In this document: piece after piece, positions 29,992 to 59,897 of the stretch
Layout: each line of letters begins with the position of its first letter
How positions within the stretch are numbered: the stretch's first letter is position 1
Assembly: GCF_003933735.1 (NCBI RefSeq)
Contig: NZ_RSED01000001.1
Location: forward strand, 372,001-436,000
Reading direction: 5' to 3'
Source: Aquabacterium soli
Lineage (GTDB): Bacteria; Pseudomonadota; Gammaproteobacteria; Burkholderiales; Burkholderiaceae_C
DNA length: 64,000 nucleotides
The notes under the pieces: generated by a model
What the model was told of the DNA's origin: nothing
Database searches by the model: none
The model's input: only the letters and a program-made list of their open reading frames with translations
Made by a program: the position numbers and the translations under genes

Positions 29992-30283
29992 GGTCTCTCC
30001 TGGATGAGGGTATGACAAGGGGAGCGGGGTGCTGGTTCCCGCCACGTTCGACGATAGGCCGCCTGTGTGTCGGTACCGTGATGCTGCGGTCCGGCCGAGG
30101 GGATCACATGGAGATGCGGGGGCGCGCTGTCATCAAGCTGTCAGCAATAGGCCAATAGGATCACGGCCTGTCTTGTGGCGTGATCACTGCCTGCCTTTCG
30201 GGCGAGGTGATCGGTCTGTTGTTCCATCCCGTCATGTGCCCGTCGATGCGGCCTGCAAAGGCCGCGTGGCTGAACTCGTCCCT

Positions 30284-30691: not shown

Positions 30692-30722
30692 TGTCCATGG
30701 CCCACCCGCAAGCGTGATCACC

Positions 30723-38338: not shown

Positions 38339-38351
38339 AAGGGCTCAGGCG

Positions 38352-39692: not shown

Positions 39693-39780
39693 AGGACAGG
39701 TTTGGACGAAGCCGCTTTACATTCGTCAACAAACCGTCACGAGTGGTCCCGACAATGGCGCGTCCAGGGCAAACACACAC

Positions 39781-40660: not shown

Positions 40661-41335
40661 TCAGGGTGGGCTGCCGGCTGTAGCCTTCACACGCAGGCGT
40701 GCCGCATCGATTTTGTCCTGGTATTCGGCCTTGAAGTTCTCAAGCCGCACGCGGCTGGTCTGGATGAACGGGTCGCTTTCACCCAGAACCTGGGCCATGC
40801 CCTTGTGCTCATAGCGGGTCAAAAGGTCTTCGCCGATCTGGGCGAGGTCGGCATTGTGGCGGGCACACTTGGCGCTGCCCTCGCTCAGCAGCTGGTTCTG
40901 CCCCTTGAGCGATGCCTCCGTGGATTGGGCTCGTGTTTGCTCGGCTTGCACCTGGGTCTTGAGTTCGGCCAACTGCGTGCTCAGCGTTTGCACCTGTGCG
41001 TGGAGCTGGTCGCGCTCCTGTTTGAGCGCATCGGCCTCTTTGGCCAGGGTGCTGGCGCGTGCGGCCGTGGCACCAGAGCTTGAGCGCAGGCGCTTGAGTT
41101 CGGACTGGGCTTCGCCCAGAGACTTCTCGGATTGCTGGCGGGCCTGGTCGGCCTTGGCCTGCTCTTCCTGCGCTGCTGTCTGCTGCTGTTGAACCTGACG
41201 CAGCTGCAGCCGAAGGCGCTTGACCTGTTCCTGCGCCTTGTCCGCCTGGGCGAAGGCCGATGAGACGACCAGGCTCAAGGCCGTGACGGCCAACAGGCGC
41301 GTGGACCAACGTGTGGAGGGTGGGGTTGATTGCAT
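40661..41335 (-). CDS. Exported coiled-coil protein
   Basis: The 224-residue product has a signal peptide cleaved near SSAFAQ and a long Gln/Glu/Ala-rich coiled coil (about 30-150), followed by a short tail containing a lone Cys and LENFKAEYQDKIDAARLRV. It is probably periplasmic. Coiled-coil proteins of this shape can act as spacers between membranes. It is the last gene of the two-partner secretion block, 16 bases after the porin stop, so it is likely co-expressed. No family recognised. Confidence 0.65.
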   Translation of the reverse strand: MQSTPPSTRWSTRLLAVTALSLVVSSAFAQADKAQEQVKRLRLQLRQVQQQQTAAQEEQAKADQARQQSEKSLGEAQSELKRLRSSSGATAARASTLAKEADALKQERDQLHAQVQTLSTQLAELKTQVQAEQTRAQSTEASLKGQNQLLSEGSAKCARHNADLAQIGEDLLTRYEHKGMAQVLGESDPFIQTSRVRLENFKAEYQDKIDAARLRVKATAGSPP

Positions 41336-41351
41336 GGCGACTGGATGTTGG

Positions 41352-43064
41352 TCAGAAGCGCACATTGAAATCCACCTGCAGGCTGTTGACCTTGTAGGTC
41401 GCGTTGGGAAAGTTGCTGTTGATCGTGCTGTTGATGTTCTCGGCCGCCAAGTAGCGAACGCCGATCGTGCTGTTGCGGTACAGCCCATAGGTGAAGCCGA
41501 GGATGTAGCCGCGCAGGTTGGTGCCGCCCAGGCCCAGATCGCTGTCGGTGAAGGCATCGAGGACGGCGTCTGAGCCGACGTTGCGGTAGGTGGCCTGCAC
41601 CTGCCAGTCATGGGATTCGCGAACCTCGCTGGCGCCCAGAGCCACCTTCAACTGATAGCCATCACGCTTGCCGCCCGGGTCGACGTTGGCATAGGTCGGG
41701 AAGGTGGCACGTTCACGGAAATCGGATGCGCTGAAGGCCGTGTTGTTGGCGTACTCAGCCGATACCATGATGTTGAAGGGATTGAAGTGCGTGAACTCGG
41801 CAGAAGCCGTGAGCACGATGGGCTTGAACTGGTAGGCCAGGCCCCATACCGGCGCGGTGTCGAGTGAGCCCGAGAGCAGGGGGTTGGTCTCGAAGACGGT
41901 GTTGCCCTTCTGGCGCAGGCCCACGGGGTACTCGTACTGTCCGTAGGTCGAGCCCGTGGGGACGCTGGTGCCGCTGATGGTGTAGTCGTTGTCGGAGCGG
42001 CCCTCGAGGTTGTTGTACTGGTAGTAGGCCAGTCCCAGCTTGACACGCGTGCGGGCACTCAGGTCCCAGTTGGCGCCAACCTGGGCGCCCCAAAGCGAAC
42101 GTGAGTTGCGCGAAGGTGGGGTCGATTCGCGCAGCGGAAAGTAGCCCAGCGTCACGAAGGGTCTGACCGATGCGGTGGGATCGGGGCTGCGGAAGGTGGC
42201 TGCGAAACCCTCGAAGTTGAGGTTCTCGTTCCACGTCATTTCGCTGCTGAACCAGGGGTTGGGGATGCGCCCGCCCTGGATGGTGACCCATTCCGCCGGA
42301 TCGAGTCGCACGAAGGCGCGGTCCACGAACAGTTGGTACTTGTTGAAGTTCTGCCCCATCGTCTGGTTGGTGGAGACGCGGTCCGTGGCGTTGCCCGTGG
42401 CGAGGCGCACCCCCACGCCGACCTCGTCGGTGACCTTGGCCGACACGCCCAGGCGCAGTCGGACGCGCTCGCGCGAGCGATCCGAGGCGGGGTCATTCAC
42501 GGGCTGGGGCAGGTTGGTGCTCGTCAGCCGATAGGCCGCGAAATCAGGGATGCGGCTGATGCCGTTGGCGTTGTTGAGCTCGGCAGCCAGGTAGGTGATC
42601 GCCGAGGTGTTGTTCTCGCTCGCGTCATCGCGTTGGTAGCGCACGCGCATATCGCCTTCGATGCGGATGCGGTCGACCCAGGAGGGCGTGGCATTGGGCA
42701 CCCCCCAGCGTTCGGCCTTGGCCTGGGCCAATACCTCTTCCTTGACCTCGTCGCGGATCTGGTTGCGCACGCTGTCTGGCACATAGGGCACCCGCAGTAC
42801 TGGCTTGCCGTCGGCCGTGGTCGTTGCGGCAGGCACTGGTTTGCGGGTTTGTTCGGCGGCGGCCTTCTGCTCTGCCGCGGCCATCAGGGCGTCGGCCTTC
42901 TCGCGGCTCAATACGCCGCCCTCCACGAGGGCGTCGATCAGGTTGCGTGTGGTTTGGCGCAGGGTCTCGAGCGCGGCGCGCTCATCGGCATGGGCGGCTG
43001 GTGCGGTGAGGGCCAGGACCATGGCCGAGAGGGCAGGCCAGTAGCGGAAGGACGTGGATGTCAT
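41352..43064 (-). CDS. Putative outer-membrane porin (Porin_5-like)
   Basis: The 570-residue product has a signal peptide cleaved near AAHADE and a short helical N-terminal domain (about 25-75, LEGGVLSREKADAL-type VEGGVLSREKADAL). A barrel-like region follows with many aromatic strands, for example WVTIQGGRIPNPWF, and an end LQVDFNVRF with terminal Phe. The layout is that of the putative porin family PF16930, where the helical domain may bind peptidoglycan or trimerise. It lies 50 bases after the TonB-like gene and might be its energised outer-membrane partner; no plug domain or TonB box is seen. Confidence 0.75.
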   Translation of the reverse strand: MTSTSFRYWPALSAMVLALTAPAAHADERAALETLRQTTRNLIDALVEGGVLSREKADALMAAAEQKAAAEQTRKPVPAATTTADGKPVLRVPYVPDSVRNQIRDEVKEEVLAQAKAERWGVPNATPSWVDRIRIEGDMRVRYQRDDASENNTSAITYLAAELNNANGISRIPDFAAYRLTSTNLPQPVNDPASDRSRERVRLRLGVSAKVTDEVGVGVRLATGNATDRVSTNQTMGQNFNKYQLFVDRAFVRLDPAEWVTIQGGRIPNPWFSSEMTWNENLNFEGFAATFRSPDPTASVRPFVTLGYFPLRESTPPSRNSRSLWGAQVGANWDLSARTRVKLGLAYYQYNNLEGRSDNDYTISGTSVPTGSTYGQYEYPVGLRQKGNTVFETNPLLSGSLDTAPVWGLAYQFKPIVLTASAEFTHFNPFNIMVSAEYANNTAFSASDFRERATFPTYANVDPGGKRDGYQLKVALGASEVRESHDWQVQATYRNVGSDAVLDAFTDSDLGLGGTNLRGYILGFTYGLYRNSTIGVRYLAAENINSTINSNFPNATYKVNSLQVDFNVRF

Positions 43065-43114
43065 GGTGATACGGCGTGTGAAGTCGGTCAAGGTGTTGCC
43101 AACGCAGGTGGGAC

Positions 43115-43798
43115 TCAGCCCGTCATGCGGTTGGTCACTTGCAGGCGGATGGGCTGGGGCACTCCAGCCGGAGGCGGGTTGCGAAAGCCGCGGAACTGCG
43201 CCAGGGCCTGGCGCAGGCGGGCATCGATGTCGGTGTTGCCGGAGGCTTCGTCAAGCTGGAAACGCTCGATGCTGCCGTCGGCGCGCACCCACAGGCTCAC
43301 GGGCAGCTTGTAGTCGCCGCCGCGCCGGAGGTTTTGGTCACGGTTGAGGTAGTCGTTGAGCTCACGGCGTGCCGCGTTGCCGAAGCTGTTGGCGGCCAGT
43401 TTGTCGCTCAGCGTGCTGCCGCTGCCACCTGTCATCACGGCACCGCCCCTGTAGTCGCTGTTCACTGAGCCTGCGGCAAACGCACTGGGACCGTCGCCTG
43501 CGGCGCCCTCCATCTTCAGCTGCTGCGGCTCGGGCGGTGCCTCCACGGGCTTGGGCTGCTCCTGAGGCTGGGGCTTGTTCTCTGGCGGCTTGGGCTCGGG
43601 CTTCTTCTCTTCCTTGGGCGGCGGTGGCGGCGGGGTGTCCGGCAGCACGGCGATTTTCACCGTCTGTGTGCGAGGTCCCTTCGCGGCGCCGCCCAGGTTC
43701 TTGTAGGCCAGCCATCCGCCGGCCATCAGTGCCAGCACGATCACGCCTGGAACGATGAACCGGGACAGGCCTTCGTCAGTGGATTCGGAAGCCGCCAT
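43115..43798 (-). CDS. TonB-like energy transducer protein
   Basis: The 227-residue product has one membrane helix (about 14-32, SRFIVPGVIVLALMAGG), a Pro/Lys/Glu-rich periplasmic spacer (about 50-95, PDTPPPPPPKEEKKPEPK), a Gly/Ser segment, and a C-terminal TonB/TolA-type domain with LPVSLWVRADGSIERFQL. This is the classical TonB layout. It lies one base after the ExbD stop, the standard ExbB-ExbD-TonB order. It would connect proton flow to an outer-membrane partner, possibly the TPS transporter, exoprotein or porin. Confidence 0.82.
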   Translation of the reverse strand: MAASESTDEGLSRFIVPGVIVLALMAGGWLAYKNLGGAAKGPRTQTVKIAVLPDTPPPPPPKEEKKPEPKPPENKPQPQEQPKPVEAPPEPQQLKMEGAAGDGPSAFAAGSVNSDYRGGAVMTGGSGSTLSDKLAANSFGNAARRELNDYLNRDQNLRRGGDYKLPVSLWVRADGSIERFQLDEASGNTDIDARLRQALAQFRGFRNPPPAGVPQPIRLQVTNRMTG

Positions 43799-43799
43799 G

Positions 43800-44201
43800 T
43801 CAGGTGCCTATCCTTGATGTGACCAGGCCCATGGGCACTTCCAGCTTGTTGCACAGGTCGATGACGGTCACGACCTGGGCGTACTGCGCCCTGGCGTCGC
43901 CCTTGATGGCGACGCTCATCTTCGGGTCGCGGGCCTTGGCCTGGGCCAGCTCGCTTTCGAGTTGCTGCGCGCTCACTGGTACACCGTTGAGCAGCATCGT
44001 GCCGCCGGGCATCACCTGCACCACCTTGAGCTCGTGCTTCTCGGTGCTGGGCTTGTTGCTGGGCTTGGGCATGGAGACGCTCAAGCCCTGTACCGAGGCC
44101 GTGGTCATCAGGATGAACACGACCAGCAGCACATAGGCCAGGTCCAGCATCGGCGTGACGTTGATGCTGTCGTAGGGTTTGGTCTCGTTCTGGATTTGCA
44201 T
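43800..44201 (-). CDS. exbD: ExbD/TolR family proton-channel subunit (second copy)
   Basis: The 133-residue product has one N-terminal membrane helix with the essential channel Asp in INVTPMLDLAYVLLVVFI and a periplasmic domain with GTMLLNGVPVS and DARAQYAQVV. It forms the ion path with ExbB. It shares nearly its whole helix and the MTTASVQG flank with the preceding ExbD, but the periplasmic domains differ, so the two may form a hetero-dimer. Confidence 0.9.
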   Translation of the reverse strand: MQIQNETKPYDSINVTPMLDLAYVLLVVFILMTTASVQGLSVSMPKPSNKPSTEKHELKVVQVMPGGTMLLNGVPVSAQQLESELAQAKARDPKMSVAIKGDARAQYAQVVTVIDLCNKLEVPMGLVTSRIGT

Positions 44202-44222
44202 GGTGTCAATGGCGCGGGTGCT

Positions 44223-44630
44223 CTACTGCAGGCGCTTGGTGGCCAGGCCGATCTCGGTGATGTCCAGGCGCTTGGCGATCTCCAGCACTTCCATGACCTT
44301 GTCGTACTGCGTGGCCGCATCGGCCTTGAGCACCACAGGCAATGCCGGGTTGGCGGCCTTGTACTGGGCCAGGCTGTCGCGCAGCTGGTCCATGCTCACG
44401 GGGTAGGCGTCCAGATAGACCTGGCCATCGGCCGTGATCGTGATGCCGCGTGTCTGGGGCTTGGCCAGGTTGTTCACCGCCAGGGTCTTGGGCTCATTCA
44501 CCTTCACACCCTGTACGGAGGCCGTGGTCATGATGATGAAGACCACCAGCAGCACATAGGCCAGGTCCAGCATGGGCGTGACGTTGATGTCGTCATACGC
44601 CTGCAACTCGCCTTTGACATCAGCGGCCAT
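44223..44630 (-). CDS. exbD: ExbD/TolR family proton-channel subunit (first copy)
   Basis: The 135-residue product has the channel helix INVTPMLDLAYVLLVVFI with the essential Asp, then a periplasmic domain with GQVYLDAYPVSMDQLRD and DAATQYDKVMEVLEIA. It follows the ExbB fusion by 37 bases and precedes the second ExbD by 21. Together with the ExbB fusion and TonB-like protein it should make a proton-driven transducer. Confidence 0.9.
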   Translation of the reverse strand: MAADVKGELQAYDDINVTPMLDLAYVLLVVFIIMTTASVQGVKVNEPKTLAVNNLAKPQTRGITITADGQVYLDAYPVSMDQLRDSLAQYKAANPALPVVLKADAATQYDKVMEVLEIAKRLDITEIGLATKRLQ

Positions 44631-44667
44631 GGTGTGCCCCTGGTTGGAGGTTCGCGTTCATGCCGGC

Positions 44668-46374
44668 TCAGCGCGCGCCGTAGGTCTCGGCCACGCGGGT
44701 CACGAACTCATCGACGAAGATGCCCATGTCCGACGAGATGTTCTTGATGCGGGCGGCCAGGTAGTTGTAGCCAAACAGGGCGGGGATGGCGACCGCCAGG
44801 CCGGCCACGGTGGCCAGCAACGCGGCCGCGATGCCCGGGGCGATGGCGTTGACGTTCACATCGCCTGCGGCGGCAATGGCCGCAAAAGTGATCATCACGC
44901 CCACGACCGTGCCCAGCAGGCCCAGGAAGGGGCCGCCGGAGATGGCGATGGTCAGCAGCACGATCTTGCTGTTGAGCGTCTGGCTTTCGCGGATCAGGTC
45001 GGCATCGATGGCGGCCTTGACGGCGTCGATGGAGGCGCCGCTCAGGGGCGTTGAGCCTGTCTTGCCCACGTCACGCTTGGTCAGCTCGCGCAGGCCGGCT
45101 TCGTACAGGCGAGCCAGTTGCGAGTGCTTCATGCCTTGCGACGACACGGTCATCACATCCCTGGCGTCGCGAAAGCCCGACAGGAACTTGCGATTGTCCT
45201 TGTCGGCGCGGCCCACCAGCACGGCCTTGTCATACATCACCCACGCGGCGATCACGAACATGACACCCAGGATGGCAATGACGACCCAGGCGTCCACCGT
45301 GAGGTTGTTGACCAGGATGGCGAAGTGACCAACCTCACCGCCGCCTTCGGCGTGTGCGACGGAGTCAGGCGTTTCGGTGCTGGTGGCCACCAGCTTGGCA
45401 TCGGCGCTCTGGGCGGCGTGGGCCAGCTTGAGCCAGTCCGCGCTGCGCACGGTGGTGGCGACCTCGAGCTGGTCCACAAGGCCGGTGATGCCCTGGCCCA
45501 GTTGAAGTGCGCCCTCAATGGGAGCGCCGGCGGCGGGCAGGTCCGTTTGGGCCGCCTGGGCACCGTTCACGTAGAGGGTGAGCTTGCCGTTGCCGACGGT
45601 CAAGGCCAGGTGCGCCCAGGCGCCAGTGGGCAACTCACCGCCGGTGGCCGTGGTGCTTCCCACGGTGACGCTGGGCTTGCCGGCATCGAGCTTCAGGCTC
45701 AGCGGGCCTTGTGCGATCAGCGTGCCCGTCACCGCCTCGGGCTTGAACCACAGGCTGATGCTGTAGGGCGCATTGGCGGCGGCCTTGAGCTTGTCGCTGG
45801 ACCAGGAAACGGCCTGGCCATCGAGCTTGCCGGATGGGCCGATCAGGCCCGTGGCTTCGCGCGCGAGGGGGCCGGAGGACTGCAGAGCGCTGGTGGCATC
45901 GGCCACGGGTTCGCCGTTCTGGCCCGAGAAGGGAATGGCCGCGGCCATGGCGCCGTCGAACAAGGCCGCATTGATGGGCTCGGCCACGGCGGCCTCGTTG
46001 CCGGCGTAGACGTAGACGGTGTTCTTGTCCGTGCCTGGCAAGGTGTTGGGCAACTGCACCCAGACCACGGCCAGCTCATTGGTGCCATCGAAACGCTCGA
46101 CCCAGTACTTCAGCGGTGTCTTGTCGTCGGCGGCGATGACGCGAAGGTCGGCCCCATCCGGCTTGGCGCCGATGAAATCGAAGTTGCCCGAATGCAGGCG
46201 CACAGGCACGACCACGCCCGACAGCGCTTCCTTGGTTTCCATGCCCTGGGCCGAGGTGTTCAGAACGACCTTGGTGCGGTGCTTGAAATCACCGCTCCAC
46301 CACGCATGGGCCAGGGATGGCAAGACCAGTGCCGACATCAGCAGGGCAGATGAGAGGATGCGCGGGACATTCAT
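44668..46374 (-). CDS. ExbB/TolQ proton channel fused to periplasmic DUF2341 and LamG-like domains
   Basis: The 568-residue product has a signal peptide (cleavage near SLAHAW), a DUF2341 domain (about 30-130, KHRTKVVLN to NTVYVYAGN), a concanavalin/LamG-like domain (about 180-325, with YSISLWFKPEAV and LTLYVNGAQA), and a membrane helix (about 358-378). A MotA/TolQ/ExbB domain follows (about 430-560) with GPFLGLLGTVVGVMITF and the last helix. Ordinary ExbB has about 240 residues and a short periplasmic tail. Here a likely ligand-binding module is placed in the periplasm on the proton channel itself. ATG at 46404 is an alternative start. Confidence 0.87.
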   Translation of the reverse strand: MNVPRILSSALLMSALVLPSLAHAWWSGDFKHRTKVVLNTSAQGMETKEALSGVVVPVRLHSGNFDFIGAKPDGADLRVIAADDKTPLKYWVERFDGTNELAVVWVQLPNTLPGTDKNTVYVYAGNEAAVAEPINAALFDGAMAAAIPFSGQNGEPVADATSALQSSGPLAREATGLIGPSGKLDGQAVSWSSDKLKAAANAPYSISLWFKPEAVTGTLIAQGPLSLKLDAGKPSVTVGSTTATGGELPTGAWAHLALTVGNGKLTLYVNGAQAAQTDLPAAGAPIEGALQLGQGITGLVDQLEVATTVRSADWLKLAHAAQSADAKLVATSTETPDSVAHAEGGGEVGHFAILVNNLTVDAWVVIAILGVMFVIAAWVMYDKAVLVGRADKDNRKFLSGFRDARDVMTVSSQGMKHSQLARLYEAGLRELTKRDVGKTGSTPLSGASIDAVKAAIDADLIRESQTLNSKIVLLTIAISGGPFLGLLGTVVGVMITFAAIAAAGDVNVNAIAPGIAAALLATVAGLAVAIPALFGYNYLAARIKNISSDMGIFVDEFVTRVAETYGAR

Positions 46375-46506
46375 GGGAAACAACCGTCTTTCAAAGAATT
46401 TCATTATTTCAATCGCGTGTGTCCTGAGAAGGGCAGGTGCTTGAGCCGATGGGGCTACGCTTGGGCAAGTTGCGGGACATGAAAGCGTCATGCTTGTGTG
46501 ATGGGC

Positions 46507-52500: not shown

Positions 52501-55500
52501 GATGATCTCGGACTTCTTGCGGAAGGTGGATTCGGGCTCGAGCGTGAGCGCCAGGCGCTGGTCACCACCCCCGTTCTGCAGGGTGCCCGTGGTGGTGCGG
52601 TGGCCGGACACGATGACCGATCCATCGTCGTTCCTGATGGCCATGGGCATGGGCGTCGTCACGTTCAGCGACGTGGCGCTGACCAGCACGGCGCCGGGCA
52701 GGATGCCGTAGCGGGCATCCATCAAGGTGTACGTGCCGGCTTTCAGTACGCTGTTGCTGGTGGCAATGGTGACCTGGTCACCGGGTTTCAGTGTCGATCC
52801 GAGCTTGTGTGTCGTGGCGTTGATCTCGGCATCCGTCGGCGCAAAGTCGTACCCGTAGTTGGGCACGATGGCGAAGACGTTCTTGCGCAGGAAGGTGTCG
52901 GTGGTGCCGCCCACGCCCTGCTTGAACTCCCACGCCAGGATGTCGCCCCCCGCGCTCACGTCCACCGAAGCCTGGTTGCTCAGGCTCAGGGTCTTGCCGT
53001 TGAGGGTGATCTGCTTGTTCACCGGCAACTTCGTCAAGTCGATGACGGTGTTGTTGTCGGATGGGGCCAGATTGGCCGCTTCGCCGCTTGCGGCGGTGGT
53101 GCCCTGGGTGCCATAGACCCAGCTGGTCTGGTTGAGCGTGCTGCCCACCGGCACCTGGGTGCCGTCGCCCGAGATGGACAGGGCCGCGCGCTCTGTCAAT
53201 GTCAGGGTGTTGGCCTGCACATCGATGGTGCCGAAGGGCTGGCGCACGGTGCCATCCAGGATGACCTCGCCGGCCTTGATGTTCAGTGTGGCCAGTGCCG
53301 ACAGCGGTGTCTGGCTGGTGCTGCCCGCCCTGGGGGCGCTCACGGTCAACTTGCCGCCTGGGGCCGTGCCTTGCGCGTCGAAGCCCTTCACGCTGAAGTC
53401 GCTCAGCGTGGTGGCGTAGACCTGCCCCGCCACCAGGTTCAGATCGCCCGTGAAGCTGAGTTGCCCCTTCAGGGCCGCGCTGCTTGAAGAACTCTGGCCC
53501 ACGAGGCGGATCTCGCCGTTGGTGCGCCCGAGGGCGGTCGAGGCGGTGGGCGACAGGGTGGCGTGCAGATCGAGCTTGTCGACGCCCATCACTGCGGTGT
53601 TGCCCACCAGCTCGATCAGGCCTGCCTGCACCTCCAGGGTGCCGGTGCCGCCCAGCTGGCCCTGCTCGGCGCGCTTGCTGGCCGTTTCCACCTGCGGGGC
53701 CAAGGGCAGGCTGTCGCCGACCTTGGTCTTGGGGCCGATGCTGACCTGGTGGGCCTGGATGAGATGCGATGCACCATCGGCCACGTCGACCACCGAGGTG
53801 TTGAGCACGATCGATTGCAGCCGGGTGCGGTCGTTGGCGGCCACCAGATGGGCCCCGGCATTGAGCTGCACGCTCTCGTCTGCACGCAACTGGATGCGGT
53901 CGAAGCCAGAGCCATTGAGCAATTCGGCCGAGACCACGCCTTCGCCGAACTTCAGGCCTGACGCTGCCAGCCGTCGCGCTTCCTCTTGCGTACCTGTGAT
54001 GCGGATGGCGCGCTTGCCGGCCGCCTCGCCATCGGGGTACTGGGCAGAGGCCGCGGCCGGGTCTGTGCGATCCACCAGCCCTTCCTGGCTCAGTGCGATG
54101 TTGATGATGCCCCCAGCCACCGAAGCATTCGGTGCCTTGGCTTCCACGGTGCCCGACAGCTGGAAGCCATCGGTGGACATGATGTTGAGCGTGCCCGCGC
54201 CTGCGCTGATCAGGCTCTTGCCGGGCAGGGCGCTGCGGTCCAGCAGACCGGTGGCGCCATTGAGGCGGATCGTGGCCGCTTCGTCCATGATGAGCTGGCC
54301 ACGCGTGGCCGTGCCATCGCTGCCACCCAGCGTGACGGTGCCGCCTGCCAGCACCTCGCCTACCTCGCGTGAAGGCTGGCCTGGCAGGCCGCCGTCGGCG
54401 CTGTAGCTCTTGACGGTGCCCGACACTTCAATCAATGAACCTGCCGCCAGGTGGATGCGCTGGCCGGCCAGGTAGCCCACCGATTCGACATCGGTGCCAC
54501 CTGCTGATGCGCCCCGTGCGCCCAGCAGCCGCAGGTTGACCTTGCCGGCCAGTGCTTGAAGGGCGCCAGCCATCTCGATGCTGCCCCCCGCGCTCAGGTT
54601 GATGCTGCCGCCGATGCCCATGTCCAGCAGCGCACCCTGCCCAATGGACAGGTTGGCCCCCTTCGCCAGCCCAAAGGTGGACGCCGTAGCCGTGCCAGGC
54701 TCGGTCTTGGCGCTCAGAGTGAGGTTGAGTCCTTGGCGCCGACCGGTGTCCAGCACGGTCAGCTCATACGGCAACGCCGACAAACCGCCCAGGCGTGCCG
54801 CAGTGGCCACCATGTTGACCAGTTGTGGGCGCACCTGTGCCCCCGCCTGCACATCGATGTGGCCGATCGATGCCACATCCAAGGTGCCGAAGCCGCGCTC
54901 GGCGAACAGGTTGGTGCCGATCGAGAAGGCACTTTCACGGCTGCCGCCGATGAGCACCGCCGGCAAGCCCGACAGCTTGAGCGTGCCTCCAGCGCTGAAG
55001 TCATATCCGCTGAGCAGACCGCCGAGTGTGAGGGTGCCCTCAGGGGGCTGCGTCCTGTCGGCATACTGCTGGTTGATGGCCAGGCTGACCGTGCCGGCGG
55101 TGCCTTGCACCAGGGTGCCGGCGCTGGAGCGCCAGGCGGCCCCCGAGACGTTGATCTGGCTATCCTGCGCCATGATCAGGCTGCGGGCCGCCTCCACGGT
55201 GACGGTGCCACCCTTGCGCGCGATACCGTCGTTGGCAGGGGCTGCCGTCACGCGCTCATCGCGCACCGTGCCCGCGGCGTCCAGCACGGCATGGCGGCCC
55301 AGCACCACGTCGGCATCGACCTGTCGCGCCTTGAGTGTCAGCGTGCCGCCAGCGGAGGTGATGCGGCCATCGATCTGGATGCCTGCGAGGGCGTTGACCT
55401 CGAAGCTGCCGCCGGATGCCAGCTTGATGGTGGGGCGATCGCCCGCGTCGGCAGCGCCCACCGTCACGGTGTTGGCCTGAAGGCTCAGGCCCGCCAGGCC

Positions 55501-58065
55501 AGCGTTGTTGATCAGGCTGGCGGCCAGTTTCAGGTCGGTGCCGACCTGGCTCAGAACTTCTTGCCAAGACTCGGTGGTCCAGCTGTTGGCCAGCGTCGGC
55601 AGCACGGGCGCCTGGCTGGTCACGGTGATGGATGAGATGGCGGTGCCCTCGGGAACCTTGGTATCGCTGTTCTCGACGCCATGCTGGCCCAGCACCAGCA
55701 GGCCGGCTGTGGGCCTGAGCGACGCATAGAGGTGGGGCTGCGTCGTCAAGGCCTGCGCGCGGTTGACCACGCGGTTTTCATCCGTCATCTGGGCGATTGA
55801 CAGGTTCGTGTTGAAGGCACGGTCACGCTCCGCCACATCGGTGGACAGGCGTTGCGTCTCGCTCATCGTGACGTGGCCATCGAGCGTGGCGCCCAGAGAC
55901 ATCACCGGAGCCGAGAGCCAAGCCACGCCTGCGCTCATGCCCACGCTCTGGGATTCCAGCACCGTGGGGGCGGTCGCGCCGGGATCTACCAGGCCCAGGC
56001 GGCTGAGGTCTTCCGCGCTGGACTTGGTCGGATCAGAGATCAGTCCGTCGTAGCGCAGGTCCTTGCTGGCGTCTTCCAGGCGGGTGATCAGGCCATTGCG
56101 CAGCAGCAGGGACGAGACCAGCGTGCCCGCGTCATAGGTGACCTGGCCGCCGCTGAAATCGATGAGCGCATCCTTGTCCAGCAGCATGGCGCCCTGGGCC
56201 TGCATGCGCAGCATGCCGCCGGCCGTCGAGTATTCTGCGGCGCTGTAGCGGATGTTGTTGTACAGGCCGGCCACGTCGCCAATGGTGATGCGGCGGCGTG
56301 CGTCGGCCAGCAGTTCGGCCCGGTAGATCACACCGTCTCGCTGCAAGGCGGCATCGGCCAATTCGATCGAGAACAGCCTGCCCTGCAATTGGTTGCGGGA
56401 CGCTGGCAGCAGCAGGTTGTTCAGGCCGGAGACGTCGACCTTGGCGCTTGACTCCATCACGATCCGGCTGTCGTCCTGCACAGGCGCCGATTGGCCGGTT
56501 CGAAGCGGTGATGTGGCCCAGTTGCTGGTGGCCAGGATGTTGACCTCGCCCGCGGGGGCCTGCACCACCGAGCCCGAGCGCAGGGTGATCTCCTTGCCGA
56601 TGATGTCGATGCGCGAGCGGTAGAAGGTGTCGCTGGATTGCTGCAGCAAGGCTTCATAGACCTTCAGGTCAGCCTCGTAGGCGGCCTTGGCCAGGTTGTA
56701 CGCGGCCTTCTGATCATCCGTGGCGGTGGACGAGATGGCCGCCGGGGCGACAGGCTTGTCACGCACGCGCATGACCTCATCCGGGCTGACACCGATCTTG
56801 CCTTCGGCGATCTGGGCCGGCGTCAGCACCAGGCCATCGACCGAGGGCAGCACCTCGGTGACGCTACCCGCGGCCAGCTCGACCGTGCCGGTGTTGTTGG
56901 CCACACGAACCGAGCTGATGCCGTCGTTCGCTGGCGTCACGGTGGTCGTGTCCTTCATCGCCGTCAGGAAGATGGCGCCGTTGTGCCCCTTCACCGCGGT
57001 GGTGGCCGTCAGCGTGCCCTTCTGGCGGATGGCCGCCCCGACCAGGTTGATCGTGCCCTTGTCGGCCCGGACCGTGCCGCTGCGGGCATCGCCGTCCAGG
57101 CGCACGTTCTCCACCGAGCCCAGATCCGGCGCCTCGGCCAGCGCCGCTTCGTCGAAGTTGTCGATGGCCACCAGCAGGCCTCGTTGCGCCAGATCCAATG
57201 GGGCGTACAGGTAGACCGTCTTGCCCGCGGCCAGGATGGCCTGGCCTTGAGGCGTCTCGATCAGGCCCTGGTTCACCACGCGGGGCGCCACCAGGATCAC
57301 GTCGCCGCCCGGCAGCGAGCGGATCTCGGCGCCTTTCTCGACCGAGATGAAGCCATGGATGGCACTGTTGTCGCCACCGAACGAGGCTTCGCCCTTGCGG
57401 AAGGCCCGGATACCCGTTTCGAACGCCTCGCTGCTGATCTTCAGTGCCGTGGCCACGAAGCTGCGGGTGTCCACGCGTGCGTTGTTGCCGAAGATCACGC
57501 CCGCGGTGTTCTCGAGCATCACTTCGCCATTGGCCGACAGCACGCCGTCGATGACCGACGGGGTGAGGCTGGCGACGCGGTTGAGCGCGCGGCCCCCGGT
57601 GGGCTGCACGAACCGCACCTGGTAGCCCTGGCCGATGTCGAAGCTGTCCCAGTTCAGCACGATGGTGGTGCCGTTCTGCACCAGCGTCATGATCTTGCCG
57701 TCATTGGACAAGCTGGGGTCTTGGTAGTTGCCGGTGTTGAGCGACCAGTTTCCGGCCGAGTAGGTGGGCAGGTTGGCCCGTGGATTGGCCAGTGCATCAC
57801 GCACCAGCGCCGATACCGGGCGCGCCGCTGGCGTCACGGTCATGGCGCCTTGCGCGCGCGATACCGCCGTGCCTGCCACGGCCCCGTCTGAGCGCATTTG
57901 TGCTTGGGCAATCGTCGACAAGCCCACCAGCGTCAGTGCACCTACCAGGGCCACGGCACGTGTCTGGCCGCCGGCGGCCTTGCTGGCCGTCCTGGCATGT
58001 TCATGCGCGGGCACCCGCATGCCGCGGCGGCGGTCGAACACAAGGCGGTGGACGTGCTTGTTCAT
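46507..58065 (-). CDS. Giant TpsA exoprotein, filamentous hemagglutinin family
   Basis: The 3852-residue product has an extended signal peptide (HRLVFDRRRGM type ESPR, 1-25, then a hydrophobic core to about 56) and an N-terminal TPS domain (about 80-290). That domain is of the HMW1 type: VLNWDSFDIGQGYQVRFVQP, GGRALNRV and IFGNNARVDTRSFVATAL. A very long Ala/Gly/Val/Thr/Asp-rich beta-helix repeat region follows, mostly of hemagglutinin-like turns. Near the C-terminus GNLYIYTMDGDIDSGKGSN and GLYAPNGEIRALDAFV resemble a DUF3739-type end, followed by a charged tail. It should be exported by the TpsB encoded 35 bases upstream. No frameshift is seen. Confidence 0.92.
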   Translation of the reverse strand: MNKHVHRLVFDRRRGMRVPAHEHARTASKAAGGQTRAVALVGALTLVGLSTIAQAQMRSDGAVAGTAVSRAQGAMTVTPAARPVSALVRDALANPRANLPTYSAGNWSLNTGNYQDPSLSNDGKIMTLVQNGTTIVLNWDSFDIGQGYQVRFVQPTGGRALNRVASLTPSVIDGVLSANGEVMLENTAGVIFGNNARVDTRSFVATALKISSEAFETGIRAFRKGEASFGGDNSAIHGFISVEKGAEIRSLPGGDVILVAPRVVNQGLIETPQGQAILAAGKTVYLYAPLDLAQRGLLVAIDNFDEAALAEAPDLGSVENVRLDGDARSGTVRADKGTINLVGAAIRQKGTLTATTAVKGHNGAIFLTAMKDTTTVTPANDGISSVRVANNTGTVELAAGSVTEVLPSVDGLVLTPAQIAEGKIGVSPDEVMRVRDKPVAPAAISSTATDDQKAAYNLAKAAYEADLKVYEALLQQSSDTFYRSRIDIIGKEITLRSGSVVQAPAGEVNILATSNWATSPLRTGQSAPVQDDSRIVMESSAKVDVSGLNNLLLPASRNQLQGRLFSIELADAALQRDGVIYRAELLADARRRITIGDVAGLYNNIRYSAAEYSTAGGMLRMQAQGAMLLDKDALIDFSGGQVTYDAGTLVSSLLLRNGLITRLEDASKDLRYDGLISDPTKSSAEDLSRLGLVDPGATAPTVLESQSVGMSAGVAWLSAPVMSLGATLDGHVTMSETQRLSTDVAERDRAFNTNLSIAQMTDENRVVNRAQALTTQPHLYASLRPTAGLLVLGQHGVENSDTKVPEGTAISSITVTSQAPVLPTLANSWTTESWQEVLSQVGTDLKLAASLINNAGLAGLSLQANTVTVGAADAGDRPTIKLASGGSFEVNALAGIQIDGRITSAGGTLTLKARQVDADVVLGRHAVLDAAGTVRDERVTAAPANDGIARKGGTVTVEAARSLIMAQDSQINVSGAAWRSSAGTLVQGTAGTVSLAINQQYADRTQPPEGTLTLGGLLSGYDFSAGGTLKLSGLPAVLIGGSRESAFSIGTNLFAERGFGTLDVASIGHIDVQAGAQVRPQLVNMVATAARLGGLSALPYELTVLDTGRRQGLNLTLSAKTEPGTATASTFGLAKGANLSIGQGALLDMGIGGSINLSAGGSIEMAGALQALAGKVNLRLLGARGASAGGTDVESVGYLAGQRIHLAAGSLIEVSGTVKSYSADGGLPGQPSREVGEVLAGGTVTLGGSDGTATRGQLIMDEAATIRLNGATGLLDRSALPGKSLISAGAGTLNIMSTDGFQLSGTVEAKAPNASVAGGIINIALSQEGLVDRTDPAAASAQYPDGEAAGKRAIRITGTQEEARRLAASGLKFGEGVVSAELLNGSGFDRIQLRADESVQLNAGAHLVAANDRTRLQSIVLNTSVVDVADGASHLIQAHQVSIGPKTKVGDSLPLAPQVETASKRAEQGQLGGTGTLEVQAGLIELVGNTAVMGVDKLDLHATLSPTASTALGRTNGEIRLVGQSSSSSAALKGQLSFTGDLNLVAGQVYATTLSDFSVKGFDAQGTAPGGKLTVSAPRAGSTSQTPLSALATLNIKAGEVILDGTVRQPFGTIDVQANTLTLTERAALSISGDGTQVPVGSTLNQTSWVYGTQGTTAASGEAANLAPSDNNTVIDLTKLPVNKQITLNGKTLSLSNQASVDVSAGGDILAWEFKQGVGGTTDTFLRKNVFAIVPNYGYDFAPTDAEINATTHKLGSTLKPGDQVTIATSNSVLKAGTYTLMDARYGILPGAVLVSATSLNVTTPMPMAIRNDDGSVIVSGHRTTTGTLQNGGGDQRLALTLEPESTFRKKSEIIVTSGNAYQAQLSNRSGDTLFKPGDAGRVSLVSDHAFDWAARFNFAGKASEALKGGQFDLSMANMVVQADTTQAVPTGAKSVGLAQLNALGADSILLGGTRKTNNDGSITVTRAADSITFQADVDANGQPVASRNVLSTTGELLAVAKSTVTVESGLTLQSTGADTGATRRYVIEGDGAALQVGHLANTDISVTGATGVDQGNLVIGQSSASSQVVLKGNSVQLDATNVLAMAESTDLATRSLSLGGKRVAVGADPAASTDASTLSISGDLLAAANQADRLKLRSYSSIDFHGSAQLGSAGMSSLTLDAPQLLGLGTSADTVVVRARDVVLANSSGRTAPTDAQSQVEQGASSLQILAQPVLRDGHTGGLTIDASLAKDQAAGALAGQRLGFAKSLLESTGDIVFTGRGQTLAQGDLTLRAARVTASSTSDQQADATGTLTVERHAAGKSLNESLGAGGKLGLSGGIVTQNGLIDIEAGRLNLLGRGLAGQSDTVVFATGSQTRVDGRLRQVSDSYAVASGGGQITAEAQTGRLVVDGHLSATAPVMPTGYAGDNPYAGSISLKAASAADGALVIGANADINLEAASGKGGSLTVDARQLTLDAAAQAAASANAQAAQTGLDKLLDISRNASGTGHRAVDVRVRGTDLALNTTVKAAMVALTSDSGKLDLGSQALIDATVPQGGVVQLQAKGDLTVQTGAQVLAQSTRDGANGGDILLSSTDGQVLLGKATIKADSANDAADGRIVIRAGQTRHANGAYTGDVNVGLLPASVTDPADAKLTLQAGQIEIEAVRVYKDASTASPTTWHTSLVAGNSTSTAWGLTSLAADAATFATATNKAKALAKLGLTGRSEAHVKAGVEIQTLGNLTIGNGTDINLSTVRAGTEPLALTVRAAGDLNVNSTISDGFTLSGTTLSTAAGDATSMRFVAGADTSSAKLSATKADASKGHFTLAGGKIIRTTAGSIDVHASGDVRLMAPTLATTSAIYVAGRTSALATNERFTTTGAATTAYANARFTERGGRLTVAAGGNVGSYAAVSTVDGVTTLTPQQVSQMTGNYFYHGGNPNAALATQRVPVAWWTGLNAFRQGFGSFGGGNISVTAGQDISNVAVVAPTNARSVQMIDDNGQVVQTSLKELNGGNIEVIAGRNIDGGVYFLGRGAGRITAGGSLNRGADSVADGTAPDTTMVYEPGTMLGLMNGHWDVSALDDLTVSYVFNPTIMPFRANGSSPVNTGSVSGAASGLSATTASLYFTYAQDAGVSLSSLKGDVNWEANAQALNLMHKTSATETMSMTGSVTSNASYLASIAPPVVHVTSLQGDVTFNRVGLALSDGGSTSSPASPLYVMPSAMSDFNVYADQDVVLQGHVQLIDAAQAQLGLPSAAQPALVSGNASTAATSFNLSGLNTSLAPAGSAAAANANGLRVFSDMSVLQANAIYDLGQQANENVVRVHAGRDIIFDRQTEDGTSANPFLRSNRPTEIVAGRDLINPAFIGQNFTDDDVTIVKAGRDIIGGIDTSSQIVIGGPGALHVEAGRDILLNQSLGVVAVANQINTALPEQSAKITLSAGNDRSLNSDKLIELHGSDPALRDAMNRALADSQLPVPGGASSWAEVSFDTALGTFRSLTDEHQVEAVNRYLNAAFVARYLPDQAGRTDAYYRSEPFLRLKQEAMWQQIRALAGQAIAIAASDNAGEEARRATQRKGLFDQAAGVADLAGLGASFHRNGDIDLTNAKVHNLGVGGGSTSGQVDNSKGGIDVIAAGQVAAGLPSAADQPAGFINFQGGSFRSLTGGDFLVGDQKVIVVGRGNLYIYTMDGDIDSGKGSNTIVTKPTPVRMFDPATGTVVTQGQPPTSGSGLQVVEPPADVTTRMGLYAPNGEIRALDAFVISAEPPEIGSPIVIGADNITGAATSPPPTPNVSLTPKVADTAAGVAQAAEAIGVGAKETSSLLTVDLLGFGEASTAASAASSNALPASDATGSKTDTPTSDQKAKDRKDKEREQDAP

Positions 58066-58100
58066 GATGGACTTCCTGGGGGCAGTGATTCAAGCGAGGG

Positions 58101-59789
58101 TCAGAACGATTGGCGGACGCTGATGTCCAGCCGGTAACGGCGGTCAGCCTTGGCGCCGCTGGCGTATTGGCGTGTGCCGTCGTCGGAGGGACGCAGCGTG
58201 TCGAAGGCCACGCGCGCCACGTCGATGCTCACCTGCAGGCCGCGCGGGCCGTTGCCGAGGCGCAGGCCCACGCCCTGGCTGCCCAAGTGGGTGCGCCCTT
58301 GCTGGGTGAGTTGTGGGTTGATCAGGTGGACGAAGCCCCTGTCAGCGAACACCAGGGCCGTGGTCTCGATGCCGGCGAACTCGAACCAGGCGGGTGTGAC
58401 CAGTTCTGCGCGGGTGCTCCAGCCCTGGTCGCCCGACTGCTCGTAGTCGAAGTAGCCGCGCACCGTGGCGGGCCCGCCCAGGCTGTATTGCTCGCCGCTA
58501 GGCAAGGCTCCGGATGCCAGCTGAAGGTCGGCGCTGAAGTTCATCCGCCAGTTGCCGAACACCGGCCGGCCATGGCCCACACCGATCTGCCACGCGAGGA
58601 AATCAGCGCTGGAGCCGGCGCGTTTGCAGTCGAACTGTTCCAGCTGCTGCCCGTTGCAATCGACCTTGCGGCCGGCCAGCGAATGCGTGCTGCCCTTGAT
58701 CGAGGTGCTGAAGCTGGTCAGTGTGTCTCCGGCACCGTTGTGCGTGATGCTGTAGCCGGCCGACAGCAGCGGATAGCGGGTAGGGGGGCGCTGAACGATG
58801 GCGCCGTCGACGAAGGTATTGAAGTCGCGGTTGTGCTTGTAGTCCACGGCCGCGTAGAAGCTGTGGTTGATCGGCCAGTTCAACCCGTCCAGCCGGCGTG
58901 ACCAGCGCAGCCCCATGAAGGTGCCCTTGGTCAGGGTGGATGAGGGGCCCGTGCCGCTGACCTTGGTGAGGGTGTCGCTCTGGCTGTCGGTGAGGGAGGC
59001 GAGCAGGTCGTCCCGGCCGCTCAATGGCAGGCCGTAGATGAGCGACAGCGAGTTGCTGTCCTTGGGGCGCTGCGGCGCGTACTGCCAGCTCAGGCCCAGG
59101 CTGTGCCCGCGCTGGAAAAGGTTGGTGGTGCTGATCGAGGCCACCACGCGGCCTCGGGTGGTGTTGAAGCTCTGCCCGTTGTTGAGTTCGATGCTGCCAC
59201 TCACGGGAGGCCTGTCCTCGACCTTGAGGTCCACATCGATGCCTTGGCCAGATTCGCTCGCGTTGACCAGGGGCGTGATCTGCAGGTCGGCCGATTGCAA
59301 TGCGGCCAGTTCCTGTTGAACCTGGGGGAAGTGCGGCACCTCGCCAGCCTTCAGGCTGGGCACGGCCTCACGGATGCGGCTGGGCAGGTGGTACTGCGAG
59401 CCAGTGACTCTCAGCTTCTCCACAGGGGCCTCGACCACCTCCAGGCGCACTTCGCCTCCATCCACACGCTGATTGGGCAGGCTGACCAGCACCGACAGGT
59501 AGCCAGCGCTCTGATAGGCCTTCTCGAGTGCGGCGCGTGCCTGCTCCAGGTCCGCGAAGCGCCGGCCCGGGCCCATGAAGGGCGTCACGGCGCGCTCGAC
59601 CACGGACGAGGGCAGCACGGTGTTGCCTTCGATCACGTACTCGTACACATCGAAGCTGGGATCGGTCTGTCCTGCCGCGGAGGCCTGCGGTGCGGGGGCA
59701 TCGGCCGCAGCAGCAGCGGCTGACTGAGCCTGCACAGGCAGGCTCTGGGCAATGGACAGCCCCAGGGCGATGGCGAGCGCTTTTTTCAT
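58101..59789 (-). CDS. TpsB outer-membrane transporter (FhaC/ShlB family)
   Basis: The 562-residue product has a signal peptide (cleavage near SLPVQAQ), a POTRA domain pair (about 50-205, YVIEGNTVLPSSVVERAV; LRVTGSQYHLPSRIREAV) and a 16-strand barrel with the VRGY motif in GGPATVRGYFDYEQSG, a hallmark of the family. The last strand ends in Phe. It passes the unfolded TpsA through the outer membrane. It is the first gene of the block. There is no convincing ribosome site upstream of ATG 59789; a terminator-like hairpin ends about 13 bases before the start. Confidence 0.93.
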   Translation of the reverse strand: MKKALAIALGLSIAQSLPVQAQSAAAAAADAPAPQASAAGQTDPSFDVYEYVIEGNTVLPSSVVERAVTPFMGPGRRFADLEQARAALEKAYQSAGYLSVLVSLPNQRVDGGEVRLEVVEAPVEKLRVTGSQYHLPSRIREAVPSLKAGEVPHFPQVQQELAALQSADLQITPLVNASESGQGIDVDLKVEDRPPVSGSIELNNGQSFNTTRGRVVASISTTNLFQRGHSLGLSWQYAPQRPKDSNSLSLIYGLPLSGRDDLLASLTDSQSDTLTKVSGTGPSSTLTKGTFMGLRWSRRLDGLNWPINHSFYAAVDYKHNRDFNTFVDGAIVQRPPTRYPLLSAGYSITHNGAGDTLTSFSTSIKGSTHSLAGRKVDCNGQQLEQFDCKRAGSSADFLAWQIGVGHGRPVFGNWRMNFSADLQLASGALPSGEQYSLGGPATVRGYFDYEQSGDQGWSTRAELVTPAWFEFAGIETTALVFADRGFVHLINPQLTQQGRTHLGSQGVGLRLGNGPRGLQVSIDVARVAFDTLRPSDDGTRQYASGAKADRRYRLDISVRQSF

Positions 59790-59835: not shown

Positions 59836-59897
59836 CATGTCAGGGCTGTGGCGGCCCCTTCGCTCCCCCCGTGAAGAGGGGAGGTGCAACCAACCGA

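What the first reader, a model, noticed from the sequence alone, without database searches (positions are those of the whole stretch)
40661..59789. Two-partner secretion block with its own proton-motive transducer and porin
Seen: eight same-strand genes with short gaps, TpsB - TpsA (3852 aa) - ExbB fusion - ExbD - ExbD - TonB-like - porin - coiled-coil protein. Established: TPS systems normally need only TpsB and TpsA, and ExbBD-TonB usually powers receptors for iron or vitamins. Inference: a surface exoprotein may be energised, tethered, released or retracted by a dedicated TonB-type motor, with the porin as a second outer-membrane partner. This is the best candidate here for an undescribed system.
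Basis: partly seen in the sequence, partly recalled or inferred. Interest (0 to 1): 0.85.

Follow-up and report, generated by a model that had tools for sequence, protein, structure and literature searches.

The report
Motor-coupled giant surface protein locus
In this bacterium and many relatives a giant secreted surface protein is inherited together with its own proton-driven motor, an outer-membrane channel and a protein shaped like a phosphate binder, beside genes that carry a phosphate-starvation control site, which hints at a machine for gathering phosphorus that still has to be tested.

Summary
The block is real: TpsB, TpsA (3852 aa), ExbB fusion, two ExbD, TonB, porin and coiled-coil protein on one strand. 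It is part of a larger conserved cluster: in 34 of 35 well-flanked relative loci all of these occur with a PstS-fold protein and a PEP-CTERM protein; the exception is a second, TPS-less motor. In 299 Pseudomonadota genomes DUF3739 (TpsA), DUF2341 (ExbB) and strong Porin_5 hits fall in the same nine genomes, one DUF2341 missing at a contig end. In Aquabacterium the outer-membrane set, with the TonB C-terminal domain, was swapped around an unswapped ExbB-ExbD core, the break lying inside tonB. TpsA ends in a short signature (86 of 100 tails, 0 of 1881 interior windows), a possible TonB docking peptide. A type II secretion operon with a conserved Pho box lies beside it. The core is in print as the phosphate-regulated pdtA/pdtB-exbB2-exbD2-tonB4-PA0696 locus of P. 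aeruginosa, its Ton genes called uncharacterised (PMC7035377, passages). Best reading: a phosphorus-scavenging surface machine whose Ton motor acts on the TpsA/porin complex. Coupling is well supported; the motor's action is inferred.

The parts
40661..41335 (-). periplasmic coiled-coil protein with signal peptide (224 aa)
   Evidence: homologue in 34 of 35 well-flanked relative loci
41352..43064 (-). Porin_5 (PF16930): model has 16 long strands behind N-terminal helices, no plug domain seen; nearest solved fold OmpM1 of Veillonella
   Evidence: Pfam E=4e-153; AlphaFold2 model pLDDT 82.6; Foldseek 8bys E=1.8e-16; sequence hits 8bym and 8bys E about 6e-4
43115..43798 (-). TonB: N-terminal TM, Pro/Glu/Lys-rich linker, TonB_2 C-terminal domain (about 43115-43414)
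   Evidence: Pfam PF13103 E=1.3e-5; N-part tracks ExbB, C-domain tracks TpsA/porin
43800..44201 (-). ExbD (second copy)
   Evidence: PF02472 E=2.7e-23; TM Asp pattern in 225 of 228 ExbD ORFs examined
44223..44630 (-). ExbD (first copy)
   Evidence: PF02472 E=5e-25
44668..46374 (-). ExbB fusion: signal peptide, periplasmic DUF2341 + LamG_3 (ConA-like), then ExbB/TolQ proton-channel domain
   Evidence: PF10102 1.5e-12, PF13385 7.5e-15, PF01618 1.2e-27; GLLG-T-V type pattern in 127 of 133 ExbB ORFs
46507..58065 (-). TpsA exoprotein, 3852 aa: ESPR, TPS domain, DUF3739 at residues 3656-3757
46648..46674 (-). C-terminal signature LTVDLLGFG of TpsA (residues 3798-3806), candidate TonB docking peptide
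58101..59789 (-). TpsB outer-membrane transporter (ShlB/FhaC type)
   Evidence: PF03865 1.1e-21, PF08479 1.4e-15
59898..61178 (-). PstS-fold secreted protein, no Pfam or NCBIfam match
   Evidence: AlphaFold2 pLDDT 86.6; the 15 Foldseek hits at E<=0.001 are all described as phosphate-binding or phosphate-transport proteins
61292..62173 (-). PEP-CTERM protein
   Evidence: PF07589 1.9e-9; exosortase genes in the same genome; conserved position
62481..63371 (-). ankyrin-repeat protein, homologue in 22 of 35 well-flanked loci
28810..29991 (-). glycerophosphodiester phosphodiesterase (GlpQ-like), divergent from the T2SS operon
   Evidence: PF03009 5.8e-40; sequence
30127..30144 (+). Pho box CTGTCATCAAGCTGTCAG, 13 of 14 consensus bases
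   Evidence: >=11 of 14 upstream of gspG in 20 of 20 loci scored
30284..39692 (+). type II secretion operon: gspG 30284-30691, gspF within 30495-31961, gspE 31958-33538, unassigned ORFs 34166-36143, gspD 36059-38338, pseudopilin-like 38352-39214, further ORF to 39692
   Evidence: neighbours of the block in relatives
39616..40632 (+). LuxR-type regulator linked to T2SS and the block
   Evidence: PF00196 1.7e-18

Best explanation
It is a phosphate-starvation surface machine. TpsB exports the giant filament TpsA. The end of TpsA (linker plus the conserved signature, hydrophobic-[T/S/L]-[V/L]-[D/E/Q]-x-x-G-x-G) stays in the periplasm, as the ends of FhaB-type exoproteins do (recalled). There, or at the porin next to it, the C-terminal domain of the dedicated TonB binds, while its transmembrane end sits in the ExbB-ExbD proton motor. 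Proton flow then pulls on or remodels the TpsA/TpsB/porin complex. The purpose is to catch phosphorus compounds at the surface (PstS-fold and PEP-CTERM proteins, GlpQ-type enzyme, type II secretion) and let them in through the porin. Shown here: gene content, conserved linkage, co-switching of the outer-membrane set with the TonB C-terminal domain, tail signature, PstS fold (model), Pho box on the neighbouring T2SS operon. Inferred: periplasmic location of the tail, TonB-tail contact, the work done by the motor, the substrate.
For: Co-occurrence: DUF3739 in 9, DUF2341 in 8 and Porin_5 at E<1e-100 in the same 9 of 299 Pseudomonadota genomes (2e-17 for nine of nine under random placement); in the ninth genome the ExbB fusion is cut by a contig end (L208). 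Same genus: 35 of 41 have the fusion; the 6 without it have neither Porin_5 nor DUF3739. Linkage survives rearrangement: motor first and TPS half downstream, divergent halves, TpsA-TpsB-ExbB order. Module swap: rpoB groups G001/G017/G033 with G028 (support 1.0), as does the ExbB+ExbD core (0.85), but TpsB, TpsA, porin, PstS-like and TonB C-domain group them with four other genomes (0.93-1.0); DNA similarity stops inside tonB after the linker and resumes after the coiled-coil gene. TonB C-domain vs TpsA r=0.91, vs ExbB C-part 0.29; TonB N-part vs ExbB N-part 0.67. Tail signature. PstS fold. Pho box in 20 of 20 scored loci. The P. aeruginosa counterpart is PhoB-regulated (PMC4971064, PMC7035377, passages).
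Against: No contact, transport or transcript data. In the window no Pho box of 11 or more of 14 stands before the TPS block itself; over 36 loci the tpsB upstream regions reach 11 in 14% versus 2% of shuffles. The tail signature is not exclusive: another TpsA of this genome, without DUF3739 and without a nearby motor, ends in INVDLAGLGD. The tail pattern was written after seeing the tails. The porin stalk has a conserved segment (VRVPYVPE type), an alternative docking site that looks alike in both haplotypes. The PstS-like family aligns with the genome's true PstS over 25 residues only and not significantly. Within type A alone the coiled-coil protein follows the ExbB N-part (0.72) more than TpsA (0.46-0.54). 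G016/G004 group with type A G031 by rpoB (1.0) but not in the motor tree, so there the motor did not simply stay. In G410 the motor is on another contig. Type V translocation is described as not powered by a gradient (PMC5422565 passage). TonB lacks the transmembrane His in 96 of 104 members.
Confidence: 0.5

Rival explanations
1. TonB works on the porin (or on TpsB), not on TpsA: an energised or gated porin imports the ligand, while TpsA is a surface receptor or scaffold, as HxuA serves HxuC.
For: Porin co-switches with the TonB C-domain (r=0.84); conserved linear segment of VRVPYVPE type between its periplasmic helices; HxuCBA precedent (PMC5422565 passage).
Against: The porin model shows no plug, and its segment looks alike in the two haplotypes whereas the TpsA signature changes with the TonB type.
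Confidence: 0.25
2. Proton-driven movement of a surface adhesin, as in Myxococcus Agl-Glt gliding: one TolQ-like, two TolR-like, TonB-like domain, outer-membrane barrel, surface adhesin. TpsA would be moved or retracted to pull the cell or its catch.
For: One ExbB with two ExbD genes in Aquabacterium; weak GltJ match of TonB, E=0.0013, far under the cut-off. The Agl-Glt comparison is recalled.
Against: Many distant loci carry a single ExbD; Pho box, PstS fold and GlpQ neighbour point to nutrition; motility partners were not searched for.
Confidence: 0.12
3. No physical coupling: neighbours that are exchanged together as a variable surface-antigen cassette by recombination, the motor serving something else.
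For: The exported proteins vary fast and co-switch; a paralogous ExbB-ExbD-TonB motor in G019 stands without TPS and porin; in G410 the motor lies apart.
Against: The switch includes only the C-terminal domain of TonB and skips ExbB-ExbD lying between the swapped parts; near-perfect co-occurrence in distant families, even where the motor lies apart; linkage kept through rearrangements.
Confidence: 0.13

Closest known systems
Pseudomonas aeruginosa VreI regulon locus: pdtA-phdA-pdtB-exbB2-exbD2-tonB4-PA0696 (putative porin)-PA0697-PA0698-PA0699, beside hxc T2SS and lapA
   Same: TPS pair, then ExbB-ExbD-TonB-porin-next gene in that order, T2SS neighbour, Pho box (PMC2729926, PMC4971064, PMC7035377: passages read). 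A plasmid locus of Klebsiella quasipneumoniae shows a short protein annotated TonB-dependent receptor, sigma factor, DUF4880 protein, TpsA, TpsB, the DUF2341-type ExbB, ExbD, TonB, porin, coiled-coil homologue, YbjN, PPIase in that order.
   Different: The window has two ExbD, TpsB before TpsA, a PstS-fold and a PEP-CTERM protein upstream (not named in the passages on PAO1), and no sigma/anti-sigma genes beside the TPS genes. The domain make-up of PA0693 itself was not tested.
HxuCBA of Haemophilus influenzae
   Same: TPS exoprotein that serves nutrient uptake together with a TonB-linked outer-membrane partner (PMC5422565 passage)
   Different: HxuC is a TonB-dependent transporter; here the barrel is a porin without a plug and the cluster has its own ExbBD-TonB
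Myxococcus Agl-Glt and Flavobacterium GldLM/SprB (recalled)
   Same: TolQR/ExbBD-type motor coupled to large surface proteins
   Different: different adhesins and partners; no motility evidence
OmpM1 of Veillonella parvula
   Same: nearest solved fold to the porin and its only sequence match in the PDB
   Different: no S-layer homology domain among the Pfam matches of the porin

Membership tests
Two-partner secretion (type Vb) | TpsB with POTRA and ShlB-type barrel | tested here: met
   PF08479 and PF03865
Two-partner secretion (type Vb) | TpsA with TPS secretion domain, adjacent to tpsB | tested here: met
   PF05860 1.1e-20, ESPR 1.2e-8
Two-partner secretion (type Vb) | secretion without proton motive force | not testable with these tools
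   needs an experiment
Ton system | ExbB, ExbD and TonB with TM, linker, C-terminal domain; channel residues kept | tested here: met
   residue roles recalled
Ton system | conserved His in the TonB transmembrane helix | tested here: not met
   His in the predicted TM core in 8 of 104 distinct sequences; none in the window protein
Ton system | cognate TonB-dependent receptor with plug next to it | tested here: not met
   the barrel is Porin_5; 16 long strands, no plug in the model
P. aeruginosa Pdt/VreI-type locus | TPS genes followed by exbB-exbD-tonB-porin-next gene in that order | tested here: met
   order in PAO1 from PMC7035377
P. aeruginosa Pdt/VreI-type locus | VreA-like protein, ECF sigma and FecR-like anti-sigma beside the TPS genes | tested here: not met
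   STN, sigma and/or FecR/DUF4880 proteins lie by the TPS genes in L206, L207, L209, L214 and in two plasmid loci, but not among the genes that flank the window block
P. aeruginosa Pdt/VreI-type locus | Pho box in the promoters of the TPS genes | tested here: inconclusive
   strong Pho box before the T2SS operon, none before tpsB or the PstS-like gene in the window
PstS phosphate-binding proteins | PstS fold | tested here: met
   Foldseek 4exl E=3.1e-7, TM 0.69 by target, 0.45 by query
PstS phosphate-binding proteins | sequence homology and ligand residues | tested here: inconclusive
   R-x3-S-G-T segment invariant or nearly so and aligned with that of PstS, but hhalign probability 2.8%
Agl-Glt gliding machinery | one TolQ-like with two TolR-like subunits | tested here: met
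   not kept in many distant loci
Agl-Glt gliding machinery | Glt outer-membrane/periplasmic proteins and motility | not tested
   only a weak GltJ match seen

The most novel reading that the evidence does not exclude
A widespread, so far unnamed machine in which a proton-driven Ton motor pulls on the periplasmic tail of a giant two-partner-secreted filament through a TonB-box-like C-terminal peptide, so that a TPS exoprotein acts as an energised scavenging arm for phosphorus. Two-partner secretion would then not be a purely passive pathway, and TonB would have a class of partners other than plugged receptors.
Probability: 0.33. Interest if true: 0.88.

Novelty: new variant of a known kind. Interest (0 to 1): 0.76.

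Why it matters
Type V secretion is described as not powered by a hydrolysable energy source or gradient (PMC5422565 passage), and TonB as serving plugged receptors. A conserved set that ties a TPS exoprotein, a porin without plug and a dedicated Ton motor together, with a natural recombination break inside tonB that separates motor-facing from outer-membrane-facing halves, makes 'does proton motive force act on a TPS protein?' a direct experiment in a bacterium not known to me as a pathogen. It would also suggest a function for uncharacterised P. aeruginosa genes and link TPS, T2SS and Ton to phosphorus supply.

Tried and rejected
Pho boxes before the PEP-CTERM, PstS-like, TpsA and Ank genes: no excess over shuffles worth claiming; tpsB (5 of 36) and ExbB (1 of 12) are weak. 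The first rpoB comparison picked wrong reading frames and gave about 50% identities; rejected and redone by ORFs that hold a typed motif: seven motifs typed from recall, one matched per sequence, mean identities between groups then 91-93%. Profile comparison of the PstS-like family with the genome's PstS: not significant. TonB-dependent receptor reading of the porin: rejected, no plug. Signature exclusive to motor-linked TpsA: rejected, one of four other TpsA of the genome has a similar end. Generic iron Ton system: rejected as the sole reading, since the TonB C-domain follows TpsA/porin.

Selections: of 49 motor loci at E<1e-60 besides the window, I fetched the neighbourhoods of 42 and set aside 7 of these with too little flanking DNA (G140, G049, G009b, G085, G037, G009, G034) before counting 34 of 35. 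Mirror-tree counts use 26 loci of one genus; rpoB was found in 23 of 26. One of 21 T2SS regions (L277) had no T2SS match and was not scored. Of 11 plasmid records covering at least 80% of the query I opened 6; by my profiles five hold motor, TpsB, porin and coiled-coil genes (four of them TpsA too), and one (L256) holds motor, coiled-coil gene and a TpsA about 15 kb on, without porin or TpsB in the stretch.

Literature: 10 searches, two of them on the same terms, in open-licence PMC only; for only the top of longer lists was seen. None of the listings showed a paper that describes this set as a system; DUF3739 occurs in no held paper. Papers were read by passages only (PMC12505986, PMC2729926, PMC7035377, PMC5422565, PMC4971064, PMC12204202, PMC3750573).
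Full report
What is there. Upstream follow, on the same strand, a protein without any Pfam or NCBIfam match, a PEP-CTERM protein and an ankyrin protein. The window lies in the genus Aquabacterium: contigs of genomes that the tool calls same genus have the lengths of named Aquabacterium records, for example G025 contig 55 and A. lacunae KMB7 (384,899 bases), G013 contig 2 and A. olei pTB101 (366,221 bases).

The unmatched protein has the PstS fold. An AlphaFold2 model from 35 aligned sequences has pLDDT 86.6; the 15 Foldseek hits with E up to 0.001 are all described as phosphate-binding or phosphate-transport proteins. An R-x3-S-G-T segment, part of the phosphate site of PstS as I recall it, is invariant or nearly so. 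A profile comparison with the genome's own PstS aligns just this segment and is not significant. The protein is PstS-like by fold; its ligand is open.

The porin model has 16 long strands behind N-terminal helices and no plug. Its closest solved structure is OmpM1 of Veillonella, also its only sequence match in the PDB. It is not a TonB-dependent receptor.

Linkage. The ExbB fusion is found at E<1e-60 in the own genome, in 35 of 41 same-genus genomes and in 12 of 107 other genomes of the family and order. Of 42 fetched loci, 35 have enough flank; 34 of these carry PEP-CTERM, PstS-like, TpsB, TpsA, ExbD, TonB, porin and coiled-coil genes; the one exception is a second motor copy in G019, beside DabA-type inorganic-carbon genes. 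In 80 named loci, nearly all Betaproteobacteria by their deposited names, TpsA lies in the stretch in 75 and TpsA or TpsB in 77. The parts mostly stay together although their order changes: motor first with the TPS half downstream (L132, L138, L167, L171, L174, L177), divergent halves (L130), TpsA-TpsB-motor (L195). The 6 same-genus genomes without the fusion have no Porin_5 and no DUF3739, while two positive controls rang.

Phylum scale. In 299 Pseudomonadota genomes, DUF3739 occurs in 9, DUF2341 in 8, Porin_5 in 12; nine of the porin genomes have E<1e-100 and are exactly the nine with DUF3739; the eight DUF2341 genomes are among them. The three further porin genomes (G299, G379, G427) have weaker matches and lack the other two domains. 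In the ninth genome (G425) the ExbB fusion is cut at a contig end (L208). Nine shared of nine has a probability of 2e-17 under random placement, relatedness ignored; the nine fall in six families. In one of them, G410, TpsA, coiled-coil gene, porin and TpsB lie on one contig and ExbB-ExbD-TonB on another: linkage is broken but the set is kept.

Natural module exchange. Among 26 loci of the genus, 19 are of type A (the window) and 7 of type B. Distances of the porin follow TpsA and TpsB (r=0.93, 0.95) but not ExbB/ExbD (0.28-0.39), although ExbB and ExbD lie between them. Split TonB: the C-terminal domain follows TpsA (0.91) and porin (0.84), hardly the ExbB C-part (0.29); the N-terminal part follows ExbB (0.60-0.67) and ExbD (0.62) more than TpsA (0.53). 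Within type A alone the trend holds more weakly (C-domain with TpsA 0.72-0.84, porin 0.60-0.68, ExbB C-part 0.23), and there the coiled-coil protein follows the ExbB N-part (0.72) more than TpsA (0.46-0.54). G001, G017 and G033 are sisters of G028 by rpoB (98.1-98.5%; tree support 1.0), yet carry type B while G028 is type A. Against G028 the DNA of G001 aligns from ExbB through both ExbD and the TonB linker (85.6%), stops at the TonB C-domain, and resumes behind the coiled-coil gene (88.6%); upstream it stops behind the LuxR gene, before the PEP-CTERM gene, but for a 192-base piece in tpsB. Trees agree: the ExbB+ExbD core with G028 (0.85), TpsB, TpsA, porin, PstS-like and TonB C-domain with the other type B genomes (0.93-1.0); ExbB alone is poorly resolved (0.50) and the TonB N-part gives neither grouping. 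A second case is less clean: G016 and G004 are nearest to type A G031 by rpoB (1.0), but the motor tree does not show this. In the clear case, then, what faces the outer membrane, including half of tonB, was exchanged and the motor kept. This is the strongest sign that TonB here serves this outer-membrane set.

The TpsA end. After DUF3739 a low-complexity linker leads to a signature such as LTVDLLGFG (window), LLLDFLGFG (type B), ISVQVLGFG (G425, same class) or IIVEVLGFG (G344, another class of the phylum), near the C-terminus. It occurs in 86 of 100 distinct tails that reach the family's C-terminal profile and in 0 of 1881 interior windows of the same proteins. The pattern was drawn from the tails, so the tail count describes and the interior count is the control. 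Most of the 14 misses are near variants. Within the genus the third residue is V in the 19 type A and L in the 7 type B tails. By shape and place it could add a strand to the TonB C-domain as a TonB box does (recalled); this is inference. Against exclusivity, one of the four other TpsA of the genome, without DUF3739 and without a motor nearby, ends similarly.

Phosphate context. A type II secretion operon (G, F, E, D and pseudopilin-like genes) with a LuxR regulator converges on the block in the window. In relatives, LuxR or T2SS genes precede the block in 24 of the 25 other genus loci examined (not found for G012) and in several distant families. The best Pho-box match of the whole window, 13 of 14 bases, lies between gspG and a divergent GlpQ-type gene. 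In 20 of 20 loci with a scored gspG (window included) the 300 bases upstream hold a box of at least 11 of 14, mostly TTGTCACAAAGCTGTCAG or close; shuffles reach this in 1.6%. The boxes are related by descent, so they are not 20 independent cases. The TPS block of the window has no such box of its own.

What is known. In P. aeruginosa, by PA numbers, vreAIR, hxc T2SS, lapA, pdtA, phdA, pdtB, exbB2, exbD2, tonB4, PA0696 (putative porin) and PA0697 to PA0699 follow one another; the pdtA and phdA promoters depend on PhoB and sigma-VreI; the Ton genes are called a still uncharacterised putative TonB system. A Klebsiella quasipneumoniae plasmid carries this order with an ExbB that matches the fusion from residue 62 on, and a Methylosinus plasmid a similar one. 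So the core is the same kind. The Aquabacterium form differs by two ExbD, PstS-like and PEP-CTERM genes, TpsB before TpsA, and no sigma/anti-sigma genes beside the TPS genes. A recent stator survey names DUF2341 as an unexplained N-terminal domain of such A subunits (PMC12505986 passages).

Mechanism. Committed reading: a low-phosphate surface machine in which the Ton motor acts on the TpsA/TpsB/porin complex, most likely through the TpsA tail (0.5). Rivals: TonB acts on the porin (0.25), adhesin movement (0.12), co-exchanged cassette without contact (0.13). No experiment here separates them; the tests are listed. Interest is high because a conserved, exception-poor set makes a question about energy in two-partner secretion testable; it is held below the top because the core locus is in print in P. 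aeruginosa and the action of the motor is unproven.

Noticed in passing
window 28810-40632: GlpQ-type gene, conserved Pho box and a T2SS operon with LuxR regulator beside the TPS block.
   Followed up: yes
L227 (own genome, contig C1 near 209 kb): Another TpsA (about 1118 aa, no DUF3739 hit, no ExbB hit nearby) has INVDLAGLGD near its end, similar to the signature.
   Followed up: no
L065/L066 (G019): Second ExbB-fusion/ExbD/TonB motor without TPS or porin in the stretch, beside DabA and a proton-antiporter-like protein.
   Followed up: partly
L206, L207, L209, L214: STN or STN + TonB_2 proteins, an ECF sigma and FecR/DUF4880 proteins by the TPS genes; G344 has three DUF3739 matches for one DUF2341 and one Porin_5 match.
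   Followed up: partly
L216 and L217 (G410): TpsA, coiled-coil gene, porin and TpsB on one contig, ExbB-ExbD-TonB on another: the set is kept although split.
   Followed up: partly
window 43115-43798 and relatives: TonB of this family lacks the transmembrane His in 96 of 104 distinct sequences.
   Followed up: no
window 59811-59836: Terminator-like 11-pair stem between the PstS-like gene and tpsB.
   Followed up: no
L173, L178, L187: Several tandem small ORFs matching the PEP-CTERM profile behind the coiled-coil gene in Methylobacillus loci.
   Followed up: no
L081 (G024): A second PstS-like gene sits between TpsA and the ExbB fusion.
   Followed up: no
L253, L254, L255: The system is carried on plasmids in Aquabacterium olei, Klebsiella quasipneumoniae (typed conjugative, IncFIB) and Methylosinus.
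   Followed up: no
window 24264-25154 (-): Another TonB-domain protein next to shikimate dehydrogenase and transglycosylase genes.
   Followed up: no
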